NCBI GenBank assembly: GCA_015472025.1
Contig: BNHL01000001.1
Coordinates: forward strand, 4,266,001-4,330,000
Reading direction: 5' to 3'
Origin: Cytophagales bacterium WSM2-2
Lineage (GTDB): Bacteria > Bacteroidota > Bacteroidia > Cytophagales > Cyclobacteriaceae
Length of the DNA: 64,000 bases
Of the stretch, positions 6,361 through 24,781 are shown piece by piece. The position numbers and the translations under genes were made by a program. The notes beneath the pieces were generated by a model. The model was given only the letters and a program-made list of their open reading frames with translations. It was not told where the DNA came from and searched no databases. Position 1 is the first letter of the stretch. Each line of letters opens with the position of its first letter.

Positions 6361-6951
6361 TTATTCCTTCTTCAAATCAACAGGAATGATGGATTTGATC
6401 AGGTGATCATTAATGCGCATGATCGCCTCCGATGGTTCGCCTGATTTGAATTCTATCGTTACCTTGGCTACCGCTTCTTTCTTCCCCGAAAGAAAACCAC
6501 CCGTTGTACCTCCCAGATCAATCATTACCGGACCCTGATGCCCTTCAGGATCATCCGGAGTAAAGCGCGTCCTGGAGGAATGCACCTCTTCCATAAATCC
6601 TTTTAGACCTACCTTAAAATCCATCTTCATGTTGTCGATCCGGATGGCCGTGATCGGCACCAGGCTTAGCATCGGTATCTGTAGTTTTTGAGTTGACGGA
6701 ATCGGAACCGTTTTTTTTCCGTCATTGTCTACTTCCTTTCCCGCATCCGGGTGCATGTTGGCCACTTCGATAGTCACCATACGGGGTTTACCGTTTTCCA
6801 ATGTCTGAATATCCTTGTCAGAAGCGGGTGTTGGCCAGGTAAAGTAGTTACGCAATTGCCGGATATGCTGCTGCTCGGCAATGCGTTGGGCATCTACAAC
6901 TGCGTTGTGAATTGACCGTAACAGTGAATTCAGATTTATTGCTTGGGCCAT
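6361..6951 (-). CDS. DUF2589-domain protein (second of operon)
   Basis: A 196-residue protein of the DUF2589 family. The diagnostic segment is IPMLSLVPITAIRIDNMKMDFKV around residues 90-115, an LVPI-x-x-I-x-I-D core that also occurs in the 250-residue paralogue upstream in the operon. The N-terminus (AINLNSLLRSIHNAVVDAQRIAEQQH) is a predicted amphipathic helix. There is no signal peptide. The ATG overlaps the end of the preceding 106-residue gene by 16 bases, so the two are probably translated together. The family has no established function. The C-terminal part (EFKSGEPSEAIMRINDHLIKSI) looks like a beta strand followed by a helix, as in the paralogue. Confidence 0.75.
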   Translation of the reverse strand: MAQAINLNSLLRSIHNAVVDAQRIAEQQHIRQLRNYFTWPTPASDKDIQTLENGKPRMVTIEVANMHPDAGKEVDNDGKKTVPIPSTQKLQIPMLSLVPITAIRIDNMKMDFKVGLKGFMEEVHSSRTRFTPDDPEGHQGPVMIDLGGTTGGFLSGKKEAVAKVTIEFKSGEPSEAIMRINDHLIKSIIPVDLKKE

Positions 6952-7271: not shown

Positions 7272-8024
7272 CTACGCTGCTGCAGCCGCTTTCAACCGGG
7301 GTGTAGTTGTTTCGCTATTCGGAGGAAGAGGAACACCGGCACCATCCTTAGTGCCATCTGCTTTTACGCGGTAGGCAACTACGTTAGATGGTTTCTGCGA
7401 CTGTGCCATGATATCCATCACACGGGCGAGGCCTTCAGGCATACCATGGTTAGTAGCGTGAATCTCCACATGGTATTTGGCGGAGTTGTCTGATGATCGC
7501 GTGTTTTCTTTATGCGAGGCCACCGAGCCGTGAATTTTTACTTCAACGCTAAAAGGTCCCCAGCCTATTTTGGCTGTGGCATCCAGTGAAGCCTGCTTGT
7601 CCTCCGAACTTTTTTCGGAAGTCGAGCTTTTTACTTCCATGTCGAAAGAGATATCAACATTATCAATCTGTAAATTGGGAATGGGCACAATGGCCAGCAT
7701 GGGAGCCTTAATCGTTACCGCCTCTATCGTGCGGATGGGAGCTCCGGTGGCATCGTCTAATGCAGTACCCGAGCGCTCAAAGGAGAAATCAACAATCCGT
7801 ACATCGCCGGCAGCCATGTAGTCTGTATCAGCCGTTTTTTTAGCGATCGCGGTCCCGGCTGCATTATACCACTGTTGCTTGAATCCCACCGCATTGATGA
7901 AGTCTGCTGTAGACTGTGCAAGATTGACATTCGCTTTTATTGCGGCATCCAATGGTCCGCCAATTAAATCTTTCATGGGCAATCCCTTAAACTGATCGGC
8001 CATGTTTACTAATCCGTCTGCCAT
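7272..8024 (-). CDS. DUF2589-domain protein (first of operon)
   Basis: A 250-residue protein and the clearest DUF2589 member here: APMLAIVPIPNLQIDNVDIS at about residues 107-126 is the family core, followed by a strand rich in charged residues (MEVKSSTSEKSSEDK). The N-terminus (MADGLVNMADQFKGLPMKDLIGGPLDAAIKANVNLAQSTADFIN) resembles the amphipathic start of the shorter paralogue, and the C-terminus ends in AAAAA. There is no signal peptide. It is the promoter-proximal gene of a three-gene operon and has a double G-A-C motif about 230 bases upstream. Function unknown; repeated occurrence of the domain in one operon suggests a homo- or hetero-oligomer. Confidence 0.8.
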   Translation of the reverse strand: MADGLVNMADQFKGLPMKDLIGGPLDAAIKANVNLAQSTADFINAVGFKQQWYNAAGTAIAKKTADTDYMAAGDVRIVDFSFERSGTALDDATGAPIRTIEAVTIKAPMLAIVPIPNLQIDNVDISFDMEVKSSTSEKSSEDKQASLDATAKIGWGPFSVEVKIHGSVASHKENTRSSDNSAKYHVEIHATNHGMPEGLARVMDIMAQSQKPSNVVAYRVKADGTKDGAGVPLPPNSETTTPRLKAAAAA

Positions 8025-11853: not shown

Positions 11854-14673
11854 ATGAACCAAAACCCTGAACAGATCGCCCGCGATCAAATCGATCAGAT
11901 GCTGACCGAATGCGGGTGGATTGTGCAGCGGAAAACCAAGATCAATTTATCAGCCGGATTTGGCGTTGCTGTAACGGAGTACCAAACCGAAACCGGACCT
12001 GTGGACTATTTATTGTTCGTTGACAAGAAGCCTGTCGGAGTTATTGAAGCAAAAAAGGCGGACGAAGGTGTTCGACTACTTTCTGTAGAAGATCAGACCA
12101 AGCGGTACGCTGAAGGCAAGCTCAAATACCTCAAGAACGATCCCTTATTCTTTGGTTACGAAAGTACAGGTGATGTAACCCGATTTACAGACTACCGCGA
12201 TCCGAAACCTCGCTCTCGAAATGTATTTTCTTTTCACAGGCCCGAAACTTTAGCGAAGTGGCTTGGCGAAGAGAAAACGCTGAGAGCAAGATTCTTTGAT
12301 TTGCCCACGCTCAATACGGAAGGTTTACGCGATTGCCAGATTAACGCGATTACAAAACTCGATACCTCTTTCAAAGAAAACAGACCAAAGGCGTTAATTC
12401 AGATGGCGACAGGTTCAGGTAAAACTTTTACCGCTATCACTTTTATCTACCGGCTGCTGAAGTTTACTAAGGCCAAGCGTGTTTTGTTTTTAGTTGATAC
12501 CAAGAATTTGGGTGAGCAGGCTGAGCAGGAATTCATGGCTTATGTTCCAAATGATGATAACCGTAAATTCACGGAGCTTTATGGAGTGCAGCGACTCAGA
12601 CGTGGAACATTTTCGGCAAACAACCAGGTTTACATCTCCACCATTCAACGATTCTATTCTATATTAAAAGATGAGGAATTAGATGAAAGTGCGGAGGAAG
12701 TCAATCCTAATGAATCTCGTGCCTGGGAAAAGCGGGAGCCTGTTCCGGTCGTGTACAATCCTAAAATACCAATCGAGTTTTTTGATTTTGTAATTGTGGA
12801 TGAGTGCCATCGCAGCATTTACAACTTATGGAAACAAGTGCTCGATTATTTCGATTCATTCCTGATTGGTTTAACAGCTACTCCCGATAATCGCACGTTT
12901 GGTTTTTTTAATCAGAATGTAGTGAGTGAATACACGCACGAACAGGCCGTAACGGATGGAGTAAATGTCGGCTTTGATGTGTATTTGATCGAAACGGAAA
13001 TTTCAAAGAAAGGTGGAGTTGTTTGGAAAGGTGAATATGTAGACCACCGCGAAAAGGATACCCGCAGAAAAAGATGGGAGCAACTGGATGAAGATAAGGT
13101 GTATTCCAACAAACAACTGGATGATGATGTGGTGAACCCGAATCAGATCCGGTTGATCATTAAAACATTTAAAGAACACCTTCCTCAGATTTTTACGGAT
13201 CGTAGAGATGAAACCGGAGTATTTGAAGTTCCAAAGACGCTCATCTTTGCCAAGACCGACTCCCATGCGGATGATATCATACAGATTGTTCGCGAAGAGT
13301 TTGCTGAAGAAAATAAGTTCTGCAAGAAGATAACCTACGGAACATCTAAGGATAAGAAAGATGACAAAGGAAATGTGGTTGAAAAAGGCGAAGACCCGAA
13401 AAGCACTCTCGCACAGTTTCGAAACGATTACTATCCACGCATTGCTGTTACCGTAGATATGATTGCCACCGGCACGGACGTAAAACCATTGGAGTGCCTG
13501 CTCTTCATGCGCGATGTGAAAAGCCGTAACTACTTTGAACAAATGAAGGGGCGCGGGACTCGGACGGTCGATTTCGAAGCGCTCAAAAAAGTGACACCTA
13601 CTGCTAAATTTACAAAAGACCATTTTGTAATTATTGATGCTATTGGAGTTACAAAGAGTTTAAAGACGGATAGCAGGCCATTAGAGAAAAAGCCTGGTGT
13701 GCCAATGAAGGATTTGTTGGGTGCTATTACGGTAGGTGCGCGGGATGAAGAATTGTTTACTTCGCTGGCGGGAAGACTAGCGCGACTTGAAAAGCAGATT
13801 ACAGAAAAAGAGCGAAAAGTATTTCAGGAAAAGGCAGCGGGTAAAACCATTAATCTCGTAGTGAAGGAATTATTGAACGCTTTTAACCCCGATGCACTGG
13901 CGGATATCCGAGAACGGGTGGAAAAAGAGTTTGCGGGTGAGGCCCCGGTGGTGAAGGATGAAAAATACAACCAGCGAGTATCCGTGCTGCAAGATAAAGC
14001 AGCCGCGGTGTTTAATGGTGAGTTAAATGAGTACATTGAAAACGTGCGCAAAGCGCATGCTCAGGTAATTGATCACATCAATCCTGATAGCCTGGTAAAC
14101 GTGGGATGGGATAAAGACAACACTGAAAAATCTCAAACGTTAATCCAAGATTTTAATGCGTGGATAGAAACACATAAAGATGAAATAACCGCACTACAAA
14201 TTTTTTATAGCCAGCCCTACCGCAGGCGCGACTTAACCTACCAAATGATTAAAGAGGTGTATGAGAAGCTCAAAACTGAAAGGCCGTTATTGGCACCCAT
14301 GCACATATGGCGCGCTTATGAGCAACTTGGTCAAAGTAATGGTTCGCCTAAGAATGAACTGGTAGCGTTGGTGTCTTTAATTAGAAGGGTGAGCGGAGTT
14401 GATAATAAGCTTACAGCATTTGACAAGACCGTGGACAAGAATTTCCAGGAATGGGTGTTTAAAAAACAGGCCGGTGCATTAAAGTTTACAGATGAGCAAA
14501 TGCAATGGCTGCGCTTGATAAAGGAATATGTAGCCAATAGCTTCCATATAGATAGAGATGATTTTGACCTGAGTCCATTCAACAGCAATGGTGGGTTAAC
14601 TAAGATGTGGAACCTGTTTGGCGAACAGATGGATGAAATTATTAATGAATTAAATGAGGTTTTAGCTGCATGA
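11854..14673 (+). CDS. hsdR: Type I restriction enzyme, motor/nuclease subunit HsdR
   Basis: A 939-residue subunit. N-terminal nuclease domain: D-Y-L-L-F-V-D-K-K-P-V-G-V-I-E-A-K-K near residues 50-68 carries the PD-(D/E)xK pattern. Superfamily 2 helicase: Walker A ATGSGKT near 185-191, the DECH box near 315-318, GLTATP near 340, and the later motif region QMKGRGTR. The C-terminal ~200 residues match the EcoEI-type HsdR C-terminal domain. HsdR translocates DNA and cuts it when the HsdS-HsdM complex finds an unmethylated site. Its stop overlaps the hsdS start (ATGA), and the operon continues for five genes. The G-A-C motif 33 bases upstream may control it. All catalytic motifs look intact. Confidence 0.95.
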   Translation: MNQNPEQIARDQIDQMLTECGWIVQRKTKINLSAGFGVAVTEYQTETGPVDYLLFVDKKPVGVIEAKKADEGVRLLSVEDQTKRYAEGKLKYLKNDPLFFGYESTGDVTRFTDYRDPKPRSRNVFSFHRPETLAKWLGEEKTLRARFFDLPTLNTEGLRDCQINAITKLDTSFKENRPKALIQMATGSGKTFTAITFIYRLLKFTKAKRVLFLVDTKNLGEQAEQEFMAYVPNDDNRKFTELYGVQRLRRGTFSANNQVYISTIQRFYSILKDEELDESAEEVNPNESRAWEKREPVPVVYNPKIPIEFFDFVIVDECHRSIYNLWKQVLDYFDSFLIGLTATPDNRTFGFFNQNVVSEYTHEQAVTDGVNVGFDVYLIETEISKKGGVVWKGEYVDHREKDTRRKRWEQLDEDKVYSNKQLDDDVVNPNQIRLIIKTFKEHLPQIFTDRRDETGVFEVPKTLIFAKTDSHADDIIQIVREEFAEENKFCKKITYGTSKDKKDDKGNVVEKGEDPKSTLAQFRNDYYPRIAVTVDMIATGTDVKPLECLLFMRDVKSRNYFEQMKGRGTRTVDFEALKKVTPTAKFTKDHFVIIDAIGVTKSLKTDSRPLEKKPGVPMKDLLGAITVGARDEELFTSLAGRLARLEKQITEKERKVFQEKAAGKTINLVVKELLNAFNPDALADIRERVEKEFAGEAPVVKDEKYNQRVSVLQDKAAAVFNGELNEYIENVRKAHAQVIDHINPDSLVNVGWDKDNTEKSQTLIQDFNAWIETHKDEITALQIFYSQPYRRRDLTYQMIKEVYEKLKTERPLLAPMHIWRAYEQLGQSNGSPKNELVALVSLIRRVSGVDNKLTAFDKTVDKNFQEWVFKKQAGALKFTDEQMQWLRLIKEYVANSFHIDRDDFDLSPFNSNGGLTKMWNLFGEQMDEIINELNEVLAA

Positions 14674-15068
14674 TTAATATAAAAGCAATTCCAATTACTT
14701 GGGAAAAGCCAATCTTAAAAGAATTGGCCATATTTATTAACGGTAAGACATTCAGCTCAAAGAGTTGGAAAAAAAAAGGAATCCCTATAATTCGGATTCA
14801 AAATTTAAAGAATGAAAAAACGGATTTCAATTATATAGATGAAAAGGAGTTTGTAGAGGATCAATTTCATGTTAATAATGGAGAGTTGTTATATGCTTGG
14901 TCAGGTACTCCAGGTACATCTTTTGGCGTTCATATTTGGAAAGGCAATTTCGCTTATCTCAATCAACATATTTTTAAGGTAATTCCATTTAGTGGAGTAA
15001 ATAAAAAAAACTGGATGAACTGCTCAGCGAACTCGAAAAAGGCAAAGAGCAATTACAAACTTCATTAG
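14670..15068 (+). pseudogene. hsdS: HsdS specificity subunit, N-terminal fragment
   Basis: 132 codons starting with an ATGA overlap on hsdR. Residues 1-110 are the first target recognition domain of a type I specificity subunit (PILKELAIFINGKTFSS, GIPIIRIQNL, GELLYAWSGTPGTSFG, YLNQHIFKV). The frame then leaves the family: after the run of eight A at 15003-15010 it reads NWMNCSANSKK and stops, while the next frame reads KLDELLSELEKGKEQLQ, the central conserved helix of HsdS. One additional A would restore reading. In addition the usual last ~60 residues of the domain (the part before the central helix, ending in IPLP-x-x-EQ) are missing. Either a sequencing error in the A-run, a phase-variable tract or a real inactivating change. 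Confidence 0.8.
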
Positions 15069-15073
15069 AGCAG

Positions 15074-16225
15074 TTGAAGGTGTACAGACAATCTATTTTG
15101 AAGAATGCCTTTGAGGGAAAGTTATCGGAAGAGTGGAGAAGTAAACAGAAGAATCTAAAAACACCTGATGTATTGGTGGCTGAAATTAAGGCCTATAGAA
15201 AACAACAATATGAAAAGCAATTAAAAGAATACAAAGCAGGTAAAGTTAAGGAAAAACCAAAGGAGCCGAAAGATATTGCCATTTTAAAAGATTCGAGCAA
15301 TTCTGATATTCAGTGGGCACTTTCAAGATTAGGTGACATTGTGGAGACAACAAGCGGTGGCACGCCTAGTAGAAATAATCCAAGCTATTATTCAGGTAAA
15401 ATACCTTGGGTGAAATCAGGCGAACTAAAGTTCAATACTATTATAAATACTGAAGAGAAAGTCACTAAAGAAGCGATTGAGAATTCAAGTGCTAAGTTGT
15501 TTCCGAAGGGAACATTGCTGGTTGCACTTTATGGTGCAAACGTTGGGAAATTAGCCTTTCTAGGAATTGAAGCAGCGACAAATCAGGCAATTGCGGGAAT
15601 TTTTGAAGACCCTTTTTACGAGTTGAATTTTCTTTACTACTATTTACTTTTTAGAAGGACAGACCTATTAAATCAAAGCACTGGTGGTGCTCAACCTAAC
15701 ATCAGTCAGACTATCTTAAATAGTTTACCAATTCCACTATGTACAATTGAAGAACAAAAGGAGATTGTGCAACAAATTGACAAGCTATTTTCACTAAATG
15801 CAGAAATGGAGAAAACAATTGAAGAGAATTTACTAAAGTCTAATTCTCTAAAACAAGGACTACTCCAAAAAGCATTTGAAGGCAAATTAGTTGAGCAAGA
15901 CCCAGCAGATGAACCCGCAAGTGTGTTGCTAGAGAGAATCAAAATGGAACGGGATGAATACTTGAAAAAAGAAAAAGAAAGAAAGAAAACTGAAAAACCA
16001 TTTCAAATAAAAGCTCGAAAGATGGCAGAAAAATTAAAACGAATCATGGAAATACTCAAAGAGAGTAAAAAACCGGTTTCAGCCAAAACACTTTGGCAAT
16101 CATCCATACACAAGGACGACATTGACAAGTTTTATGGGGAGCTAAAAATACACATTGAAGCGGGTGAGATCAAAGAAACTAGAAATGGAAAAGAGTCGCT
16201 TTTAGAGTTAGGGGATAGGAAATGA
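15074..16225 (+). CDS. hsdS: HsdS specificity subunit, central and second recognition part
   Basis: 383 codons if begun at a TTG at 15074, but the HsdS-like frame really extends back to about 15009, so this is the second part of the frameshifted hsdS. It holds the central helix (VYRQSILKNAFEGKLSEEW), a lysine-rich linker, the complete second recognition domain (LGDIVETTSGGTPSR, GKIPWVKSGEL, LVALYGANVGKLAFLG, TGGAQPNISQTILNSLPIPL) and the C-terminal helix (LKQGLLQKAFEGKLVEQDP). About 90 further residues form a basic extension ending in a winged-helix-like segment (LKESKKPVSAKTLW). HsdS chooses the DNA site for HsdM and HsdR. A single-recognition-domain protein might still pair as a dimer. The stop overlaps the next gene (ATGA). 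Confidence 0.85.
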   Translation: MKVYRQSILKNAFEGKLSEEWRSKQKNLKTPDVLVAEIKAYRKQQYEKQLKEYKAGKVKEKPKEPKDIAILKDSSNSDIQWALSRLGDIVETTSGGTPSRNNPSYYSGKIPWVKSGELKFNTIINTEEKVTKEAIENSSAKLFPKGTLLVALYGANVGKLAFLGIEAATNQAIAGIFEDPFYELNFLYYYLLFRRTDLLNQSTGGAQPNISQTILNSLPIPLCTIEEQKEIVQQIDKLFSLNAEMEKTIEENLLKSNSLKQGLLQKAFEGKLVEQDPADEPASVLLERIKMERDEYLKKEKERKKTEKPFQIKARKMAEKLKRIMEILKESKKPVSAKTLWQSSIHKDDIDKFYGELKIHIEAGEIKETRNGKESLLELGDRK

Positions 16226-17844
16226 GAATAGATAAAGTCTATATTGAAGATTATAAAAACCTGAAGCGCTTCAGCATTGACCTCGATGAGAAGGAAATGA
16301 AGACAGTCCTGCTTGGTCAGAATGCAACTGGAAAATCGAATTTCATTGAAGCGCTTATTCTTATTTTTAAATATCTCGATTTAGAAAAGGAAGTACCTGA
16401 AAAAATTGGATTGAAATATTCAATTGAATATACCTGTCGGGACTTTGTTGTTAAAGTCAATAACCTCAATGGAGAGTACGAGTTTGACGTGCTAGGAAAA
16501 GGCTCTTTGTTTAATGGGAAGTTATTTCATGCTGTGCTATATCCAAATAAATTATACAAGACAGAATTCTTCAAAAGAAAGGAGGAATTCCTACCGAAAT
16601 ATGTTTTTGCTTACTACTCAGGCTTGAGTAATAAACTAAATTCATTGTTCTGGGATCATCAGGCGAAATTTTATAGTGAGATAATAAAGGCAAATTTTAA
16701 GGATGAAAAGCTTGACTCACTTAGGAAACTATTTTATGTAAAACTAGTCCACTCTTACTTTGTCTTACTCGCATACTTTACCCACAAAGATGAGGACAGT
16801 ATAAAGTTCTTAGATGAAGTTCTTGGCATTGAAGATATCGATTCAATACTGTTTGTGTTAAAGATGCCAGACTGGGCCAAAAGCCAGGTTAAGAAAAATC
16901 CCGATGATATTTTTTGGACCGCAAAAGGACTTGTTAGGCCTTTTTTAGAGAAATTATGGACGCTTTGTATTGCACCAATTTACAGCGATGAAACTGTTCA
17001 GACAGATTTCTATGAATTTGAATCACAGAAGCGCCTTTATCTTTTTCTAAAAGGAAAAGAGCAACTACAAGAGTTGGCAAAGACCTATACTAACAATACA
17101 GCTTTGTTCAAAGCACTTGAGAGTACTTACATTTCAAAATTGATTTCAGAAGTTCGAATAAAAGTCAGGAAAAGAAAAGTAGATGGTAGCATTACCTTCA
17201 AAGAACTAAGCGAAGGAGAACAACAACTGCTAACAGTTTTAGGCCTCCTGAAGTTTACAAGGGATGAAGAATCGCTTATTCTCCTTGATGAACCTGATAC
17301 CCACTTGAATCCAATTTGGAAATGGCGCTACCTTGAATTTTTGGATAAGGTGGTGCATAACAGTGATAGTACGCAGATTATTCTTAATACGCATGATCCT
17401 CTTGTTATTGGTGGACTTAAAAAGGAGGAAGTGAGAGTCTTTCAAACTGGATCAGATGGAAAGATAGATGTAATTCAACCAGAATTTGATCCGCGTGGGC
17501 TTGGGGTTGAAGGTATTTTAACTAGCGATCTATTTGGCTTACCAACAACATTAGACGAGCATACAAAAAACATACTTGATAAAAGAAACGATTTATTAGT
17601 TAAGCAACAAAAACATCAACTAAATGAGAGTGAGCAAATTCAGCTCAGAGAAATATTTAGTGAATTGGAGAAATTAGGTTTCTCAAATACATTTAGAGAC
17701 CCACTTTATCAAAAATTTATAGTTGCATACAAGCAACGAATTAAAGATGATACTAAACTAAGTTTCACAAAGGAGGATATTGAAAAACAAAATAAGGTTG
17801 CTTTAGAAATTCTTGAAGAGCTAACAAAAGAAGAAAAGGAATGA
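16222..17844 (+). CDS. PtuA-like AAA/ABC-type ATPase (Septu-type defence)
   Basis: A 540-residue ATPase of the SMC/ABC-like class. Walker A GQNATGKS at residues 32-39, a long insertion of helices, the signature LSEGEQQLL near 330, Walker B SLILLDEPDTHLNP near 350 and an H-loop NTHDP. The C-terminal segment GILTSDLFGLP and the following helices resemble PtuA of the Septu anti-phage system. In Septu, PtuA works with the HNH nuclease PtuB and halts phage by nucleolytic attack; its ATPase acts as the sensor or regulator. It overlaps hsdS upstream and the HNH gene downstream by ATGA. Base composition is A-rich like hsdS. Alternative: another OLD-like ATPase partner of a nuclease. Confidence 0.8.
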   Translation: MRIDKVYIEDYKNLKRFSIDLDEKEMKTVLLGQNATGKSNFIEALILIFKYLDLEKEVPEKIGLKYSIEYTCRDFVVKVNNLNGEYEFDVLGKGSLFNGKLFHAVLYPNKLYKTEFFKRKEEFLPKYVFAYYSGLSNKLNSLFWDHQAKFYSEIIKANFKDEKLDSLRKLFYVKLVHSYFVLLAYFTHKDEDSIKFLDEVLGIEDIDSILFVLKMPDWAKSQVKKNPDDIFWTAKGLVRPFLEKLWTLCIAPIYSDETVQTDFYEFESQKRLYLFLKGKEQLQELAKTYTNNTALFKALESTYISKLISEVRIKVRKRKVDGSITFKELSEGEQQLLTVLGLLKFTRDEESLILLDEPDTHLNPIWKWRYLEFLDKVVHNSDSTQIILNTHDPLVIGGLKKEEVRVFQTGSDGKIDVIQPEFDPRGLGVEGILTSDLFGLPTTLDEHTKNILDKRNDLLVKQQKHQLNESEQIQLREIFSELEKLGFSNTFRDPLYQKFIVAYKQRIKDDTKLSFTKEDIEKQNKVALEILEELTKEEKE

Positions 17845-18632
17845 TTTACGTAGATAGAACGGGGCATATACCAGATGCAGCATGGATAACAAATGCAGAT
17901 TTATTGACGCAAGATTTGTTAGCTGCGGCTGATGCTGATGCAAGAAATAAAATTATAGACGATAATCAGACATTATGGGGTGAATTAAAGGATTTTCTTC
18001 TTGGTATTTCTCAAAATAAATGCTGGTATTCGGAAGCAAGAGACGCATATACACATTATCATGTAGATCACTTTAGACCTAAAAAGGAAGCACTAGGAAA
18101 TGATAAAGTTGATTACGGAGGTTATTGGTGGCTTGCATTTGAATGGACAAACTATAGAGTTTGTGGAGGAGCAGGGAATGTTCGAAAAGGCGCAAAGTTC
18201 GCTGTTAGGGCAAATAAGGCAAATCAACCTGGAGATTCAATTGATGATGAAATCATTTACTTTTTGGACCCGTGCGAAGAAGAGGATGTCTTGAAAATTA
18301 CCTTTAACGAACATGGACAGATTACTCCAATTACCGCATCGGGTTGGGATTACGAGAGAGCTTTCTACACTATTGAAAGCTTGAATTTGAACTTTAAGCT
18401 TCTACAGGAAAAAAGAAAAGAAATATGGACAAAGTGTTTCACTTTGATAAAGGAAACCCAAAATCTAATGTCTCAGAATGATGCGACACCAAGCGCAAAT
18501 AGAAGGGGGCAAATCAAAGAGAAGCTCAAACAGCTTAAGGAATTAGTTAAAACAACATCTGAATTTTCAGCCACTGCAAAAGCGTGCCTACAGAGTGCGG
18601 GTTTGGCATGGACATTACAAATTGCAGCATAA
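17841..18632 (+). CDS. PtuB-like HNH endonuclease (Septu-type defence)
   Basis: A 263-residue protein overlapping the ATPase stop by ATGA. The nuclease centre is HVDHFRPKK at about residues 73-81, then a spacer and W-T-N-Y-R-V in the position of the family's W-x-N-L/Y, as in TIGR02646/PtuB-type HNH proteins. The cysteines that bind a structural zinc in many relatives are only partly present: CWYSEA replaces the usual CxYC, and no CxxC follows N-Y-R. The C-terminal half is helical and charged. PtuB cuts DNA (or tRNA in some relatives) when its ATPase partner is triggered. Pairing with the preceding ATPase is the strongest evidence for a Septu-type module. hsdM follows 10 bases later. Confidence 0.75.
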   Translation: MIYVDRTGHIPDAAWITNADLLTQDLLAAADADARNKIIDDNQTLWGELKDFLLGISQNKCWYSEARDAYTHYHVDHFRPKKEALGNDKVDYGGYWWLAFEWTNYRVCGGAGNVRKGAKFAVRANKANQPGDSIDDEIIYFLDPCEEEDVLKITFNEHGQITPITASGWDYERAFYTIESLNLNFKLLQEKRKEIWTKCFTLIKETQNLMSQNDATPSANRRGQIKEKLKQLKELVKTTSEFSATAKACLQSAGLAWTLQIAA

Positions 18633-18642
18633 ATTAAGAGAG

Positions 18643-20121
18643 ATGTCAAGCACTATCGTTCAAAAGATTTGGAACTTCTGTAATACCCTTCGTGATGATG
18701 GTGTGAGTTATGGAGATTATTTGGAACAGTTAACGTATTTGTTGTTTCTTAAAATGGCTGATGAGTATTCCGGTCCGCCACACAATAGAAAAGATATTAA
18801 GATTCCAAAGGGTTTTGATTGGAAATCACTTAAGAAAGAAAGTGGTGCAGCGCTTGAAACTAAGTACAACAAGGCGCTAGTTGCACTTTCAAAGGAGAAG
18901 GGAATTCTAGGTCAGATTTTTGTTAAAAGTCAGAATAAGATTCAAGATCCGGCTAAGCTCTTCAAGCTAATCCAAATGATTGGTGAGGAGAATTGGGTTG
19001 GCATGGGTGTAAAGGACAAAGGAGATATTTATGAAGGTTTGCTCAAGAAAAACGCGGAAGATACCAAGAGCGGAGCCGGTCAATACTTTACACCGCGTGA
19101 GTTAATACAAGCCATGGTAGCCTGCATACAGCCAGAGCCAAAGAAAACCATTGCAGACCCAGCCTGTGGCACCGGTGGTTTCTTCCTGGGTGCATATGAT
19201 TTTCTCGTTCAGCAAGATTTAGACAAGGGTCAGCGAGAGTTCTTAAAATCAAAAACCTTCCATGGTAATGAAATTGTAGCCAACACACGCAGGCTTTGCC
19301 TCATGAACCTTTTCCTGCATGGCATTGGTGATATTACTTCTACCAGTCTTATTTCATCAGAAGATGCTTTGCTCTCAACACCAAAGACCACATTCGATTA
19401 TGTGTTAGCAAATCCTCCCTTCGGCAAGAAGAGTAGCATGACCATTACCAATGAAGAAACAGGTGAGGAAGAAAAGGATGACTTGATTTATAACCGGCAG
19501 GATTTCGTAGTAACAACTACCAACAAGCAGCTTAACTTCTTACAGCATATAATGAGCATGCTCAAATCCACGGGGAAGGCTGCTGTAGTGTTACCTGATA
19601 ACGTTCTGTTTGAAGGAGGAGTTGGCGAAACAGTCAGAAAGTCATTATTAGAAAAAACAGATTTACACACCATACTTCGGTTGCCAACAGGTATATTCTA
19701 TGCTCAAGGTGTAAAGGCCAACGTTCTCTTTTTTGATGGCAACCCCAATACAAAGAACGTGGGAACCAAAGATGTTTGGGTTTATGACTATCGTACCAAC
19801 ATCCATCACACGTTGAAGAAGAACTCACTCAAGTTCGAAGACCTGGAGGATTTCATCAAGTGCTATAATCCAACAAATCGAAAAAAGCGCAAAGAAACAT
19901 GGAGTGAAAAAACACTTAATGGTCGTTGGAGGAAATTCACTTATAAGGAAATTATTGCAAGAGATAAGACATCTTTAGATATCACTTGGCTAAAGGACAG
20001 TTCTTTAGCTGATCTCGATAATTTACCTGATCCTGATGTGCTGGCCATTGAAATTATTGAAAACCTTGAAGCAGGTTTGTTGAACTTTAAAGCAATTGTA
20101 GCCGCACTTAATAACAAGTAG
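18643..20121 (+). CDS. hsdM: Type I DNA methyltransferase subunit HsdM
   Basis: 492 residues from the ATG at 18643, which is preceded by AAGAGAG; an in-frame ATG at 18595 lies inside the HNH gene and is rejected. The N-terminal helical domain (SSTIVQKIWNFCNTLRDDGVS) is typical. The SAM-binding motif I is DPACGTGGFF near residues 171-181 and the catalytic motif IV is NPPF near 256-259, so this is an N6-adenine methyltransferase. HsdM with HsdS methylates the recognition site and protects host DNA. It is the last gene of the operon; hsdM at the end, after two non-RM genes, is unusual. The gene looks intact. Confidence 0.93.
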   Translation: MSSTIVQKIWNFCNTLRDDGVSYGDYLEQLTYLLFLKMADEYSGPPHNRKDIKIPKGFDWKSLKKESGAALETKYNKALVALSKEKGILGQIFVKSQNKIQDPAKLFKLIQMIGEENWVGMGVKDKGDIYEGLLKKNAEDTKSGAGQYFTPRELIQAMVACIQPEPKKTIADPACGTGGFFLGAYDFLVQQDLDKGQREFLKSKTFHGNEIVANTRRLCLMNLFLHGIGDITSTSLISSEDALLSTPKTTFDYVLANPPFGKKSSMTITNEETGEEEKDDLIYNRQDFVVTTTNKQLNFLQHIMSMLKSTGKAAVVLPDNVLFEGGVGETVRKSLLEKTDLHTILRLPTGIFYAQGVKANVLFFDGNPNTKNVGTKDVWVYDYRTNIHHTLKKNSLKFEDLEDFIKCYNPTNRKKRKETWSEKTLNGRWRKFTYKEIIARDKTSLDITWLKDSSLADLDNLPDPDVLAIEIIENLEAGLLNFKAIVAALNNK

Positions 20122-20238: not shown

Positions 20239-20575
20239 TTACTTTTTCAATTTTTCCACCTCTTTCTTTTCCAATCCTGTTAGTTCGGCTATTTCTGAAA
20301 TTGATAGTCCCTTTTTCAAAAGCTTCTTGGCAAACTCGACATCTTTTTCCTTTCTAATTCTCATTTCAGCCGCAGCAAGTCGCTGCTCCGCCTTCCTCTC
20401 ATTAATCGCCCTCTGTTCCTTCAGTTTATCCACCTGGGAGAAACTCAAATCATAATAACTGTTGTCCATGATCTGTTTTAATAGCCCGCTGTCGGCAAAG
20501 CTGTAGAACTTCTCTTCGTTGATGATGAGGTGGTCTATGATGGGGAGTTTTACAAAGATGCCGATGGCTCCCAAT
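20239..20575 (-). pseudogene. RadC-family gene remnant, C-terminal part
   Basis: The frame reads from an R1 element into a RadC C-terminus: IGIFVKLPIIDHLIINEEKFYSFADSGLL matches the end of the JAB/MPN domain (compare VIDHMIISEEKYYSFENDGL in the intact gene at 20792), followed by a lysine-rich coiled region and a terminal helix-turn-helix-like LSISEIAELTGLEKKEVEKL. The whole front of the protein, including the metal-binding HNHPSG motif, is gone, and the upstream codons belong to R1 copy B. The remnant runs in the opposite direction to the intact paralogue. It was most likely truncated by arrival of R1 or by recombination at it. Confidence 0.75.
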
Positions 20576-20666
20576 CTCAGATATCCGGATATATAGAGTC
20601 GGGAAATTAAACTCACTATTGACACAGTATCATAAACGTTGTTGGTCGACCAAACAACAACATTGG
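20571..20666. repeat. R1 MITE-like element, copy B
   Basis: Core CTCAGATATCCGGATATATA through ACTCACTATTGACACAGTAT to CATAAACG, then the right-end near-palindrome TTGTTGGTCGACCAAACAA and CAACATTGG. The left palindrome is missing where it abuts the radC remnant. One C-to-T change in the most conserved part distinguishes it from the other copies. Confidence 0.8.
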
Positions 20667-20791
20667 TTCAAAGCAAGGGCAGGAGGTGAAATATGAAAAA
20701 CCAACCCCCAACGTGTTACATCCTACTACCAGCTCATTTTCCGCCCGCTGTCCGCATTTTTTAATTATTATTGCTTCACAATGCCTTCCAG

Positions 20792-21400
20792 ATGAAAGTA
20801 AAGCTATCGCCCGATCAGAAAATTCAGGTTGCTAATTCAGACGATATATATAAGGTGATGCAGCAGATATTGTTGCGTGAGAACAGACTCAGAAGAGGGC
20901 AGGAGTACTTTTGGGTAGTGGGCCTGAGCAACTCAAACAAGATACTCTTTGTAGAGTTAGTGAGCCTGGGCGCTAACAACCGTGTAATGGTGCATCCGCC
21001 CGAAGTATTCCGGATGGGTATCTATAAGCTGGCTGTTAATATCGTGCTGGTCCACAATCATCCCAGCGGCAACCTAGCCGTATCCCGTCCAGACAGAGAC
21101 TTCACCGACCGCATGATCAAGTCAGGCGATATGCTCAATATAAAAGTGATCGACCACATGATCATCTCCGAAGAAAAATATTACAGCTTCGAAAACGATG
21201 GCCTCATGATGGAACTCCGCAATAGCGGCCTCTATGAACTGGTGGAGCGGGAAAAGCTACAGTTGAATGAGATCAAAACAGAGGGGATTAAAAGAATAAA
21301 GACCAAAGAGATTGCTGCCAATTTTAAAAAGGCCGGAGTAGATATTGAAACGATCAAGAAGGCAACGGGCCTGAGTAAGGCCGAGATCAGGACCTTATAG
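20792..21400 (+). CDS. RadC-family JAB/MPN-domain protein
   Basis: 202 residues from the ATG at 20792 (an upstream in-frame TTG at 20771 is less likely). The JAMM metal site HNHPSGNLAVSRPD near residues 88-101 fits H-x-H-x7-S-x-x-D exactly, so zinc binding and hydrolase fold are retained. After the domain comes a C-terminal tail with a charged helix and an HTH-like AGVDIETIKKATGLSKAEIR. Unlike classical RadC it has no N-terminal helix-hairpin-helix domain; this short form is common near mobile elements and defence islands in Bacteroidota. A role in DNA repair is not established for the family. The tail is homologous to the remnant at 20239, so the two are old duplicates. Confidence 0.8.
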   Translation: MKVKLSPDQKIQVANSDDIYKVMQQILLRENRLRRGQEYFWVVGLSNSNKILFVELVSLGANNRVMVHPPEVFRMGIYKLAVNIVLVHNHPSGNLAVSRPDRDFTDRMIKSGDMLNIKVIDHMIISEEKYYSFENDGLMMELRNSGLYELVEREKLQLNEIKTEGIKRIKTKEIAANFKKAGVDIETIKKATGLSKAEIRTL

Positions 21401-24160: not shown

Positions 24161-24781
24161 ATGAAGGCAATACCTGTCCTGAATTTAGATTTTTACAACA
24201 ATTCAGAAATCCTTACTCAAACGGATTTCATTCTTATGTCAATGACAAACAAGGCTGCTTTTTCTTCGCAGGCCTTTATAGATCAAATGACAAAAACGGC
24301 AAGCTCCGCTTCAATCTTGCGAAACGCAATGTCTGCTCCGAATACAAAGGAGAAGACAAGTACGGTGAAAGCAGCTCGTGACGGACTAGACCATGAACTT
24401 ACGGTGCTGGCATCTATGGTAGAAGCTGCAGCCAACGACCCGGCGGTAAGAGACGACCAGCGTGTGCCTATCGTGCAGTCGGCCGGTATGGATGTGAAGA
24501 GCAAAGGTGGTGGCAAAAGTAAACTTCAGTTTGCCGTTGCCCAGGGTGGCTCTTCTGGCAGTGTAATTCTCACAGCAGAGGCTGGCGCGAGGGGGCATGA
24601 GTGGAGATCTACCCCAGACATCGAAAAATATGAAAACCAAACTCCTCTGGCCACTACTACGCTGTCACGAGTAGAGGTGACGGGACTAACTGTTGGTATA
24701 AAAATGGCATTTTTTCACAGGCCTATTATCCCAGGTAAAAACACCGACTGGGAAGGACCGATCATCTTTGAAATCAAATAG
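24161..24781 (+). CDS. Hypothetical protein
   Basis: 206 residues from the ATG at 24161; a later ATG at 24236 would give a 181-residue form. No signal peptide or membrane segment. Residues about 40-100 are predicted helical (SSASILRNAMSAPNTKE, LDHELTVLASMVEAAAND), then a glycine/serine-rich beta part (KSKGGGKSKLQFAVAQGGSS, VILTAEAGARGHEWRS) and a C-terminal PLATTTLSRVEVTGLTVG that could be a strand-rich domain. I do not recognise the family. It stands alone just after the tandem arrays and is followed by a palindrome. Its alternation of helical N-terminus and beta C-terminus is loosely like the DUF2589 proteins at 6361-8024, but the family core is absent. Confidence 0.6.
   Translation: MKAIPVLNLDFYNNSEILTQTDFILMSMTNKAAFSSQAFIDQMTKTASSASILRNAMSAPNTKEKTSTVKAARDGLDHELTVLASMVEAAANDPAVRDDQRVPIVQSAGMDVKSKGGGKSKLQFAVAQGGSSGSVILTAEAGARGHEWRSTPDIEKYENQTPLATTTLSRVEVTGLTVGIKMAFFHRPIIPGKNTDWEGPIIFEIK

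What the first reader, a model, noticed from the sequence alone, without database searches (positions are those of the whole stretch)
11854..20121. PtuA/PtuB-like (Septu-type) pair nested inside a type I restriction-modification operon
Seen: five genes in one direction, hsdR-hsdS-ATPase-HNH-hsdM, with ATGA stop/start overlaps at 14670, 16222 and 17841 and a 10-base gap before hsdM. Known: an SMC-like ATPase plus HNH nuclease is the Septu pair, normally a stand-alone unit. Inferred: a nested or mixed system where HsdM/HsdS state may control the ATPase/nuclease, or a backup killing module released if restriction fails. The order with hsdM last is unusual.
Basis: partly seen in the sequence, partly recalled or inferred. 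Interest (0 to 1): 0.75.

Follow-up and report, generated by a model that had tools for sequence, protein, structure and literature searches.

The report
Restriction methylase coupled to Septu
In this bacterium a DNA-marking restriction operon carries a two-gene phage-defence pair (Septu); in the relatives that could be read, the pair sits right behind the target-recognition gene and often the usual DNA-cutting subunit is missing, so the methylase may be the sensor and Septu the weapon.

Summary
The five genes are real: hsdR-hsdS-ptuA-ptuB-hsdM, with ATGA overlaps as stated. The ATPase and HNH proteins are PtuA/PtuB of a distinct branch. "hsdM last" is normal for this restriction family (23 of 38 loci).

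The pair is not a random insertion. In 29 of 29 loci with readable upstream sequence ptuA lies directly behind hsdS; for one canonical PtuA model it does in 1 of 29. HsdS beside window-type PtuA carries a C-terminal winged-helix-like extension (24 of 25; 0 of 34 HsdS without ptuA). hsdR is in the locus in only 7 of 24 evaluable cases; one closed-contig genome (G316) showed no full-length HsdR anywhere. E. coli has an hsdM-hsdS-ptuA-ptuB island without hsdR in which hsdM, ptuA and ptuB are under purifying selection.

Best reading: HsdM/HsdS is the self/non-self sensor, docks PtuA through the HsdS extension, and PtuAB is its effector, with HsdR optional. No biochemistry supports this yet. A PrrC-like guardian and a mere shared operon remain alternatives.

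The parts
11854..14673 (+). hsdR, type I restriction subunit, EcoAI/EcoEI-like (939 aa); optional member of the locus
   Evidence: Pfam EcoEI_R_C 143.6 bits, ResIII 138.8; PADLOC REase_I
14670..15068 (+). hsdS fragment 1: N-terminal part of target-recognition domain 1 (132 aa), ends in a stop
   Evidence: Methylase_S 32.4 bits
15003..15010 (+). A-run at which about 50 codons of TRD1 are missing and the frame changes
   Evidence: sequence; alignment with relatives A2
15074..16225 (+). hsdS fragment 2: central conserved helix, TRD2, second helix, C-terminal extension (383 aa from TTG; frame open from about 15005)
   Evidence: Methylase_S 90.3 bits; AF2 model pLDDT 80.6 matches HsdS 1yf2 and 2y7c
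16037..16222 (+). HsdS C-terminal winged-helix-like extension, found beside window-type ptuA and not in HsdS without ptuA
16222..17844 (+). ptuA, ABC/SMC-type ATPase (540 aa); Walker B LLDEPD, LSEGE signature and HDPL invariant in 11 relatives, Walker A nearly so
   Evidence: PADLOC PDLC00293 614.8 bits; alignment A4; PDB PtuA hits
17841..18632 (+). ptuB, HNH nuclease (263 aa); invariant KCWY.E, DHxRPK, YWW, N104, N113 in 13 relatives
   Evidence: PADLOC PDLC00333 289 bits; A5; fold match to Septu and retron PtuB-size chains
18643..20121 (+). hsdM, N6-adenine methyltransferase (492 aa), NPPF motif
   Evidence: N6_Mtase 242.8 bits, HsdM_N; PDLC03026 645.8 bits; motif

Best explanation
The locus belongs to a recurrent composite system in which a type I methyltransferase (HsdM+HsdS) is coupled to a Septu effector (PtuA ATPase + PtuB HNH nuclease). 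Proposed mechanism: HsdM2S scans and methylates its target; a C-terminal winged helix on HsdS docks PtuA; on DNA lacking the host mark, or when the complex is blocked by a phage inhibitor, PtuA changes its ATP-bound oligomer and licenses PtuB to cut phage DNA or a host tRNA. HsdR is optional: where present (window, L004, L005, L011, L094, L130, L176) the operon has two effectors on one sensor; where absent PtuAB is the only effector of the locus. Shown: gene identities, fixed place behind hsdS, HsdS extension, loci without hsdR, purifying selection on E. coli copies. Inferred: physical docking, the trigger, the substrate. In this genome hsdS is broken, so this copy may be inactive or run on a half-HsdS that still carries the extension.
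For: Directly behind hsdS in 29 of 29 readable loci of this PtuA lineage (the less certain HsdS confirmed by Pfam) against 1 of 29 loci of canonical PtuA model PDLC00278 (Fisher p 2e-15, which treats loci as independent; L097/L098 are 99% alike). HsdS extension in 24 of 25 window-type loci and 0 of 34 HsdS without ptuA. Nineteen of the 25 built the wider profile; of the six outside it (L002, L051, L094, L097, L174, L175) five pass; with the first profile 11 of 14 held-out pass E<0.01. hsdR in 7 of 24 evaluable loci; no full-length HsdR found in single-contig genome G316 or in MAG G403. E. coli copies: dN/dS hsdM 0.07-0.08, ptuA 0.06-0.08, ptuB 0.06, hsdS 0.31-0.38. Extension identity tracks PtuA (rho 0.57) more than HsdM (0.39), the HsdS body tracks HsdM (0.65) more than PtuA (0.46), 171 pairs, not tested for significance.
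Against: No interaction or activity data. The extension adjoins ptuA in the DNA, so its co-variation could be linkage. L094 (score -2.4) and the four distant PtuA loci (L130-L132, L176) lack it yet keep the gene order. In the 395-genome search the extension was missed in G174, the third genome with window-type ptuA (its HsdS scores only 14 bits). A winged helix could bind DNA or regulate transcription instead. hsdR is present in the window itself. HsdR elsewhere could act in trans in genomes that have a full-size candidate (L003, L009, L013, G226, G174); chromosomes behind the plasmids and whole E. coli genomes were not searched for hsdR. The window's hsdS is broken while the cell lives. Many of the 34 control HsdS are close relatives of each other.
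Confidence: 0.5

Rival explanations
1. PrrC-like guardian: PtuAB is a latent killer held silent by the HsdMS(R) complex and released when phage anti-restriction proteins inhibit it. It would be the two-gene analogue of PrrC, which has been cloned from a locus of the four genes HsdR, HsdS, PrrC, HsdM (PMC11555353, passages).
For: Same kind of slot as PrrC; PtuAB of retron-Eco7 depletes tRNA-Tyr and Septu EcB88 cleaves it (PMC11555353, PMC13096335, passages and abstract), as PrrC attacks tRNA-Lys when EcoPrrI is inhibited (PMC12707154, passages). The HsdS extension gives a tether.
Against: 17 of 24 evaluable loci have no hsdR, so there is no HsdR of the locus to guard. Window hsdS is broken without evident toxicity, though the fragment with the extension remains open.
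Confidence: 0.27
2. Shared operon only: an ordinary, independently acting Septu pair that uses the type I operon as a slot, as TgvAB, DarTG2, Fic and others do.
For: Slots of the same RM family hold many unrelated genes: Fic, DUF5131, YhcG, GmrSD_N, RhuM, DUF2326, one example of each tested. TgvAB from a V. cholerae type I operon protects by itself, though 10-100-fold less against several phages than the whole cluster (PMC11411939, passages). 0 of 38 other HsdM loci fetched carry this ptuAB. PtuB and PtuAB are exchanged between HsdM backbones.
Against: Not seen away from hsdS (29 of 29), matched by a domain on HsdS; the canonical PtuA control is not so placed (1 of 29).
Confidence: 0.18
3. The window copy is a decaying relic: hsdS is truncated and the locus no longer functions.
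For: About 50 codons missing plus a frame change in TRD1; no other HsdS found in the genome.
Against: hsdR, ptuA, ptuB and hsdM are open with conserved motifs. Truncation of EcoDXXI hsdS is reported to create a new specificity (a title seen in the reference list of PMC12707154). This concerns the one copy, not the system, and can be true together with the other readings.
Confidence: 0.4

Closest known systems
Septu (PtuA/PtuB)
   Same: ABC-type ATPase followed by HNH nuclease; PADLOC PtuA/PtuB models; PtuB fold matches chains of solved Septu and retron complexes
   Different: separate PtuA branch (support 1.0 in a midpoint-rooted tree), tied to hsdS; canonical control loci are not (1 of 29)
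PrrC in type IC restriction operons (EcoPrrI)
   Same: nuclease embedded in a type I operon; cloned set HsdR, HsdS, PrrC, HsdM (PMC11555353)
   Different: two proteins with an HNH nuclease; hsdR often absent; HsdS carries an extension
NCBIfam TIGR04435 'restriction system-associated AAA family ATPase'
   Same: best NCBIfam model for window PtuA; 7 of 7 members over cut-off in 247 genomes lie directly behind hsdS
   Different: window PtuA 134.6 bits against cut-off 300; followed by a ~365-aa gene that the ptuB model does not match (two tested have no Pfam hit); only the name is known to me, no paper found
TgvAB and DarTG2 embedded in type I operons
   Same: two-gene anti-phage units inside hsd operons (PMC11411939, PMC12255303, passages)
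   Different: other protein families; no HsdS adaptor was mentioned in the passages read; hsdR kept in the examples described
MADS (methylation-associated defence system)
   Same: NCBIfam names a methyltransferase MAD2, an S subunit MAD5 and an AAA ATPase MAD3
   Different: scores far under NCBIfam cut-offs (104.9 of 720, 48.9 of 420, 34.1 of 400)
Retron I-A / Septu type II
   Same: PtuA and PtuB effectors
   Different: no reverse transcriptase among the five genes identified; HsdM/HsdS instead; retron effector models under cut-off

Membership tests
Septu | PtuA-type ATPase with ATP-binding motifs | tested here: met
   PDLC00293 614.8 bits; motifs conserved
Septu | PtuB HNH nuclease directly downstream | tested here: met
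   PDLC00333 289 bits; fold match; H77, N104, N113 invariant in 13
Septu | stand-alone two-gene unit | tested here: not met
   directly behind hsdS in 29 of 29 readable loci
Septu | anti-phage activity needing ATPase and HNH | not testable with these tools
   needs experiment
Type I restriction-modification | HsdR, HsdM and HsdS encoded together | tested here: met
   all three in window, but hsdS in two frames
Type I restriction-modification | intact HsdS with two target-recognition domains | tested here: not met
   TRD1 truncated and frame-shifted
Type I restriction-modification | HsdR kept as effector in relatives of the composite | tested here: not met
   hsdR in 7 of 24 evaluable loci
PrrC-type guardian | nuclease gene embedded in a type I operon | tested here: met
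PrrC-type guardian | PrrC protein (anticodon nuclease) | tested here: not met
   proteins are PtuA and PtuB; no PrrC model among the hits shown (the PADLOC lists are cut at 25)
PrrC-type guardian | activation by inhibition of the restriction enzyme | not testable with these tools
   needs experiment
TIGR04435 | score over curated cut-off 300 | tested here: not met
   134.6 bits
MADS | MAD2/MAD3/MAD5 scores over cut-offs | tested here: not met
   104.9 of 720, 48.9 of 420, 34.1 of 400
Retron I-A | NF041760/NF041761 effectors over cut-off | tested here: not met
   65.7 of 500 and 45.3 of 150

The most novel reading that the evidence does not exclude
A methylase-guided Septu: a self-sufficient hsdM-hsdS-ptuA-ptuB system, present in E. 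coli and several phyla, in which HsdM/HsdS supplies self/non-self recognition and the HsdS winged helix hands the signal to PtuAB, which replaces HsdR as effector.
Probability: 0.42. Interest if true: 0.88.

Novelty: new variant of a known kind. Interest (0 to 1): 0.72.

Why it matters
How Septu senses infection is open as far as I know. If this branch takes its trigger from a type I methyltransferase, the trigger becomes testable by choosing target sites and methylation states. It would also show a type I methylase working with an effector other than HsdR, and suggests that some 'orphan' hsdM-hsdS pairs without hsdR may be complete defence systems. Tools that list Septu and type I RM separately would miss the unit.

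Tried and rejected
Silent hsdS cassettes or repeats explaining the frame change: none found. Retron or MADS membership: under cut-offs. ptuAB carried by phages: no PtuA match in phages at 1e-15, none in viral contigs. Literature on an hsdR-less hsdM-hsdS-Septu unit: none recognised in search listings (open-licence PMC papers; preprints, including Payne 2024 on embedded defences, not read). Papers seen as passages: PMC8565338, PMC11411939, PMC11555353, PMC13096335, PMC12255303, PMC12707154. Li 2024 on PtuAB is not held. The idea that the extension is general to this HsdS family: rejected (0 of 34). The idea that all PtuA are hsdS-bound: rejected by 29 PDLC00278 loci (chosen from 50 places in 34 of 247 genomes); this is one of many PtuA models, and others were not tried. 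In that control L167 has hsdS directly upstream and L148 has hsdM upstream and hsdS pieces downstream. The PtuA tree used 54 sequences; L012, L013 and eight control loci were left out, and L174-L176 came later. Where in the HsdS model the Fur-like matches lie could not be read: the tool that gives ranges was not available, so that they fall on the extension is inferred from length and secondary structure.
Full report
OBSERVATION. hsdS is not intact. The first ORF stops at 15068 after 132 aa. The rest is in another frame and, compared with relatives, about 50 residues of TRD1 are absent at the A-run 15003-15010. PF01420 finds only the two pieces of this hsdS in the genome, PF02384 finds one place only, this hsdM, and there are no repeats at the site. 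I cannot tell a real deletion from an assembly fault.

IDENTITY. PtuA: PADLOC PDLC00293, 614.8 bits; PtuB: PDLC00333, 289 bits. NCBIfam curated cut-offs for the retron PtuA/PtuB, TIGR04435 and TIGR02646 models are not reached, and Pfam finds no domain in PtuB. PDB sequence search finds PtuA chains (best E 2.6e-7) and PtuB 8ee7 weakly (E 0.009). A model of PtuB (pLDDT 73) has chains of PtuB size from Septu and retron complexes as its ten best PDB matches, all with probability 1.00, six with E below 0.001. ATPase motifs are conserved in 11 PtuA; D76-H77, N104 and N113 are among the invariant residues in 13 PtuB. That these are the HNH triad is my inference.

CONTEXT IN RELATIVES. A scan of one genome for each of 84,980 species with PtuA gave 12 loci; 11 of 12 have ptuA-ptuB and then hsdM downstream (in L011 two more genes intervene), and the twelfth, L012, starts inside ptuA. 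In 395 genomes of the window's phylum (Bacteroidota by inference) 6, the window's included, have a PtuA match at 1e-30; all 6 lie directly behind hsdS. The five plasmid matches among 72,556 records, all Pseudomonadota, also do. A DNA search with the Pantoea gene found 8 of 5,426 E. coli genomes with a short similar stretch; a search with the whole four-gene block found it at 99% or more in 6 genomes and diverged in 4; I read five of these ten loci (L095-L099). A further 267 genomes, partly the same ones, gave 4 besides the window; one (L177) is L013 again, and the three new ones (L174-L176) conform. In total 29 of 29 loci with readable upstream sequence have hsdS as the next gene upstream, overlapping or within about 25 bp except L002 (about 100 bp) and L130 (up to about 200 bp). 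They include Bacteroidota, Pseudomonadota, WOR-3 and Auribacterota. L008 (Persephonella) and L012 are cut by contig ends. Control: 29 loci of the canonical PtuA model PDLC00278, chosen from 50 places by score and flank, have hsdS directly upstream in 1.

TWO GROUPS. Window-type loci (25 of the 29) come as R-S-A-B-M, S-A-B-M or M-S-A-B; L094 has R, an Abi family gene and then M-S-A-B. Four distant ones (L130, L131, L132, L176) have the same A-B behind S, but their HsdS lack the extension. A tree of 54 PtuA puts all hsdS-bound ones, with TIGR04435, in one clade of support 1.0 against the canonical controls, under midpoint rooting; loci with and without hsdR are interleaved. The control exception L167 falls among the controls.

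HSDS EXTENSION. HsdS in window-type loci ends in about 60-70 extra residues. A profile from nine loci (L009 of WOR-3, the others Bacteroidota or same-class genomes) detects it in 11 of 14 held-out ptuA-adjacent HsdS at E<0.01 (misses: L093, L094, L095) and in 0 of 34 HsdS, one from each of 34 HsdM loci without ptuA (best E 0.051). Many of the 34 are close relatives of each other, and a few are fragments. With the wider profile A1, built from 19 of the 25, only L094 fails and the best of the 34 scores 3.5 bits. New loci L174 and L175 score 75 and 73.5 bits. In 395 genomes A1 scores 107 and 91 bits in the window genome and G316; it missed G174, whose PtuA is 38% identical; all other matches are at most 24 bits, mostly in short ORFs. 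The model of the window fragment (pLDDT 80.6) shows three helices and two strands there. Foldseek lists Fur and PerR winged-helix proteins over about 60 columns (probability mostly 0.99-1.00 but E 0.08-0.28); that they fall on the extension is inferred. HsdS beside TIGR04435 ATPases also has a tail of similar look that the profile does not score.

HSDR. Present in the locus in 7 of 24 evaluable loci (window, L004, L005, L011, L094, L130, L176). Absent in 17 (L003, L010, L013, L050, L051, L090-L093, L095-L099, L131, L132, L174), by tblastn with four HsdR queries and, where annotated, by annotation. Flanks differ: L131 has only 1.9 kb before its contig end (with an opposite-strand gene), and L090-L093 have short flanks, but the whole plasmids were searched. 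Seven are cut by contig or region ends (L002, L006-L009, L012, L175). Whole-genome searches with PF18766, PF08463 and PF04313 found no full-length HsdR in G316 (one contig, 99% complete) or G403 (a MAG); the matches there are in ORFs of 159-625 aa. MAGs G395 and G399 gave weak or no matches. Full-size candidates exist elsewhere in G396, G402, G406, G226 and G174, and an 809-aa ORF with a weak match in G385. G226 and G385 were searched with PF04313 only. Plasmids W01-W04 have none, but their chromosomes were not searched.

SELECTION AND EXCHANGE. Between E. coli L096 and L099 dN/dS is 0.084 (hsdM), 0.332 (hsdS), 0.083 (ptuA) and 0.060 (ptuB); L096 against L098 gives 0.068 for hsdM (0.062 for ptuA, with saturated dS), while their ptuB are 34% identical. 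Vibrio L091 shares ptuA (84%) and ptuB (85%) with L096 but hsdM only 58%. So parts are exchanged while the place behind hsdS stays. In the window hsdS, ptuA and ptuB have 35-38% GC against 43% for hsdR and 40% for hsdM, consistent with hsdS-ptuA-ptuB entering as a block. Against L005 the window keeps hsdR 83% and hsdM 82% but ptuB 31%.

SLOTS. The same R-S-M family holds other genes between hsdR and hsdS or hsdS and hsdM; one example of each was named by Pfam: Fic, DUF5131, YhcG, GmrSD_N, RhuM, DUF2326, and a weak Y1_Tnp. So a slot for passengers exists, and position alone would prove little; the fixed link to hsdS, the extension and the loci without hsdR are what argue for coupling. None of the 38 HsdM loci fetched (of 44 non-own places) has a ptuA or ptuB match to the window proteins at 1e-5.

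READING. I hold that HsdMS is the sensor and PtuAB its effector (0.5). The guardian model is next: PrrC sits in a type I operon and acts when EcoPrrI is inhibited (PMC12707154, passages), and PtuAB of retron-Eco7 and Septu EcB88 act on tRNA-Tyr, while another Septu is reported to target nicked DNA (PMC11555353, PMC13096335, passages). It is weakened by the loci without hsdR. Embedded anti-phage units in type I operons are known (TgvAB, DarTG2), Septu inside Hma is reported, and NCBIfam already names a related ATPase 'restriction system-associated'; so the general kind is known. The HsdS adaptor and the hsdR-less unit I recognised in no listing (searches named under Tried and rejected).

Noticed in passing
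L156-L162 (TIGR04435 loci): A sister system: (hsdR)-hsdM-hsdS-TIGR04435 ATPase followed by a ~365-aa gene not matched by the ptuB model (two tested have no Pfam hit); hsdR is not seen in L161 and L162, and HsdS has its own C-terminal tail.
   Followed up: partly
L098:2714-5668, L095:2326-5430: E. coli islands with the four genes also carry hypothetical proteins upstream; the 371- and 494-aa ones of L098 have no Pfam or PADLOC match. A Fic gene is downstream and an integrase nearby.
   Followed up: partly
L062, L065, L067, L069, L070, L072-L078, between hsdR and hsdS: Similar genes (one Pfam-tested in L069: DUF5131), often with a second unnamed gene, recur upstream of hsdS in these type I operons.
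   Followed up: partly
window 20239-21400: Two RadC/JAB-like ORFs (by eye) follow the operon; RadC/JAB genes are also annotated near the E. coli islands L095, L096 and L099.
   Followed up: no
L005, L098 versus window, L096: ptuB is replaced by a 31-34% identical type while hsdM (82-87%) stays close, as if the effector is exchanged.
   Followed up: partly
L013 = L177: ptuA (and hsdM) are split over frames in this complete MAG chromosome.
   Followed up: no
L167: A canonical-type PtuA behind hsdS with an HsdM-like gene: the one exception in the control set.
   Followed up: no
window 7272-8024, 6361-6951, 24161-24781: Proteins of unknown function near the operon that look alike (DUF2589-like, by eye).
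   Followed up: no
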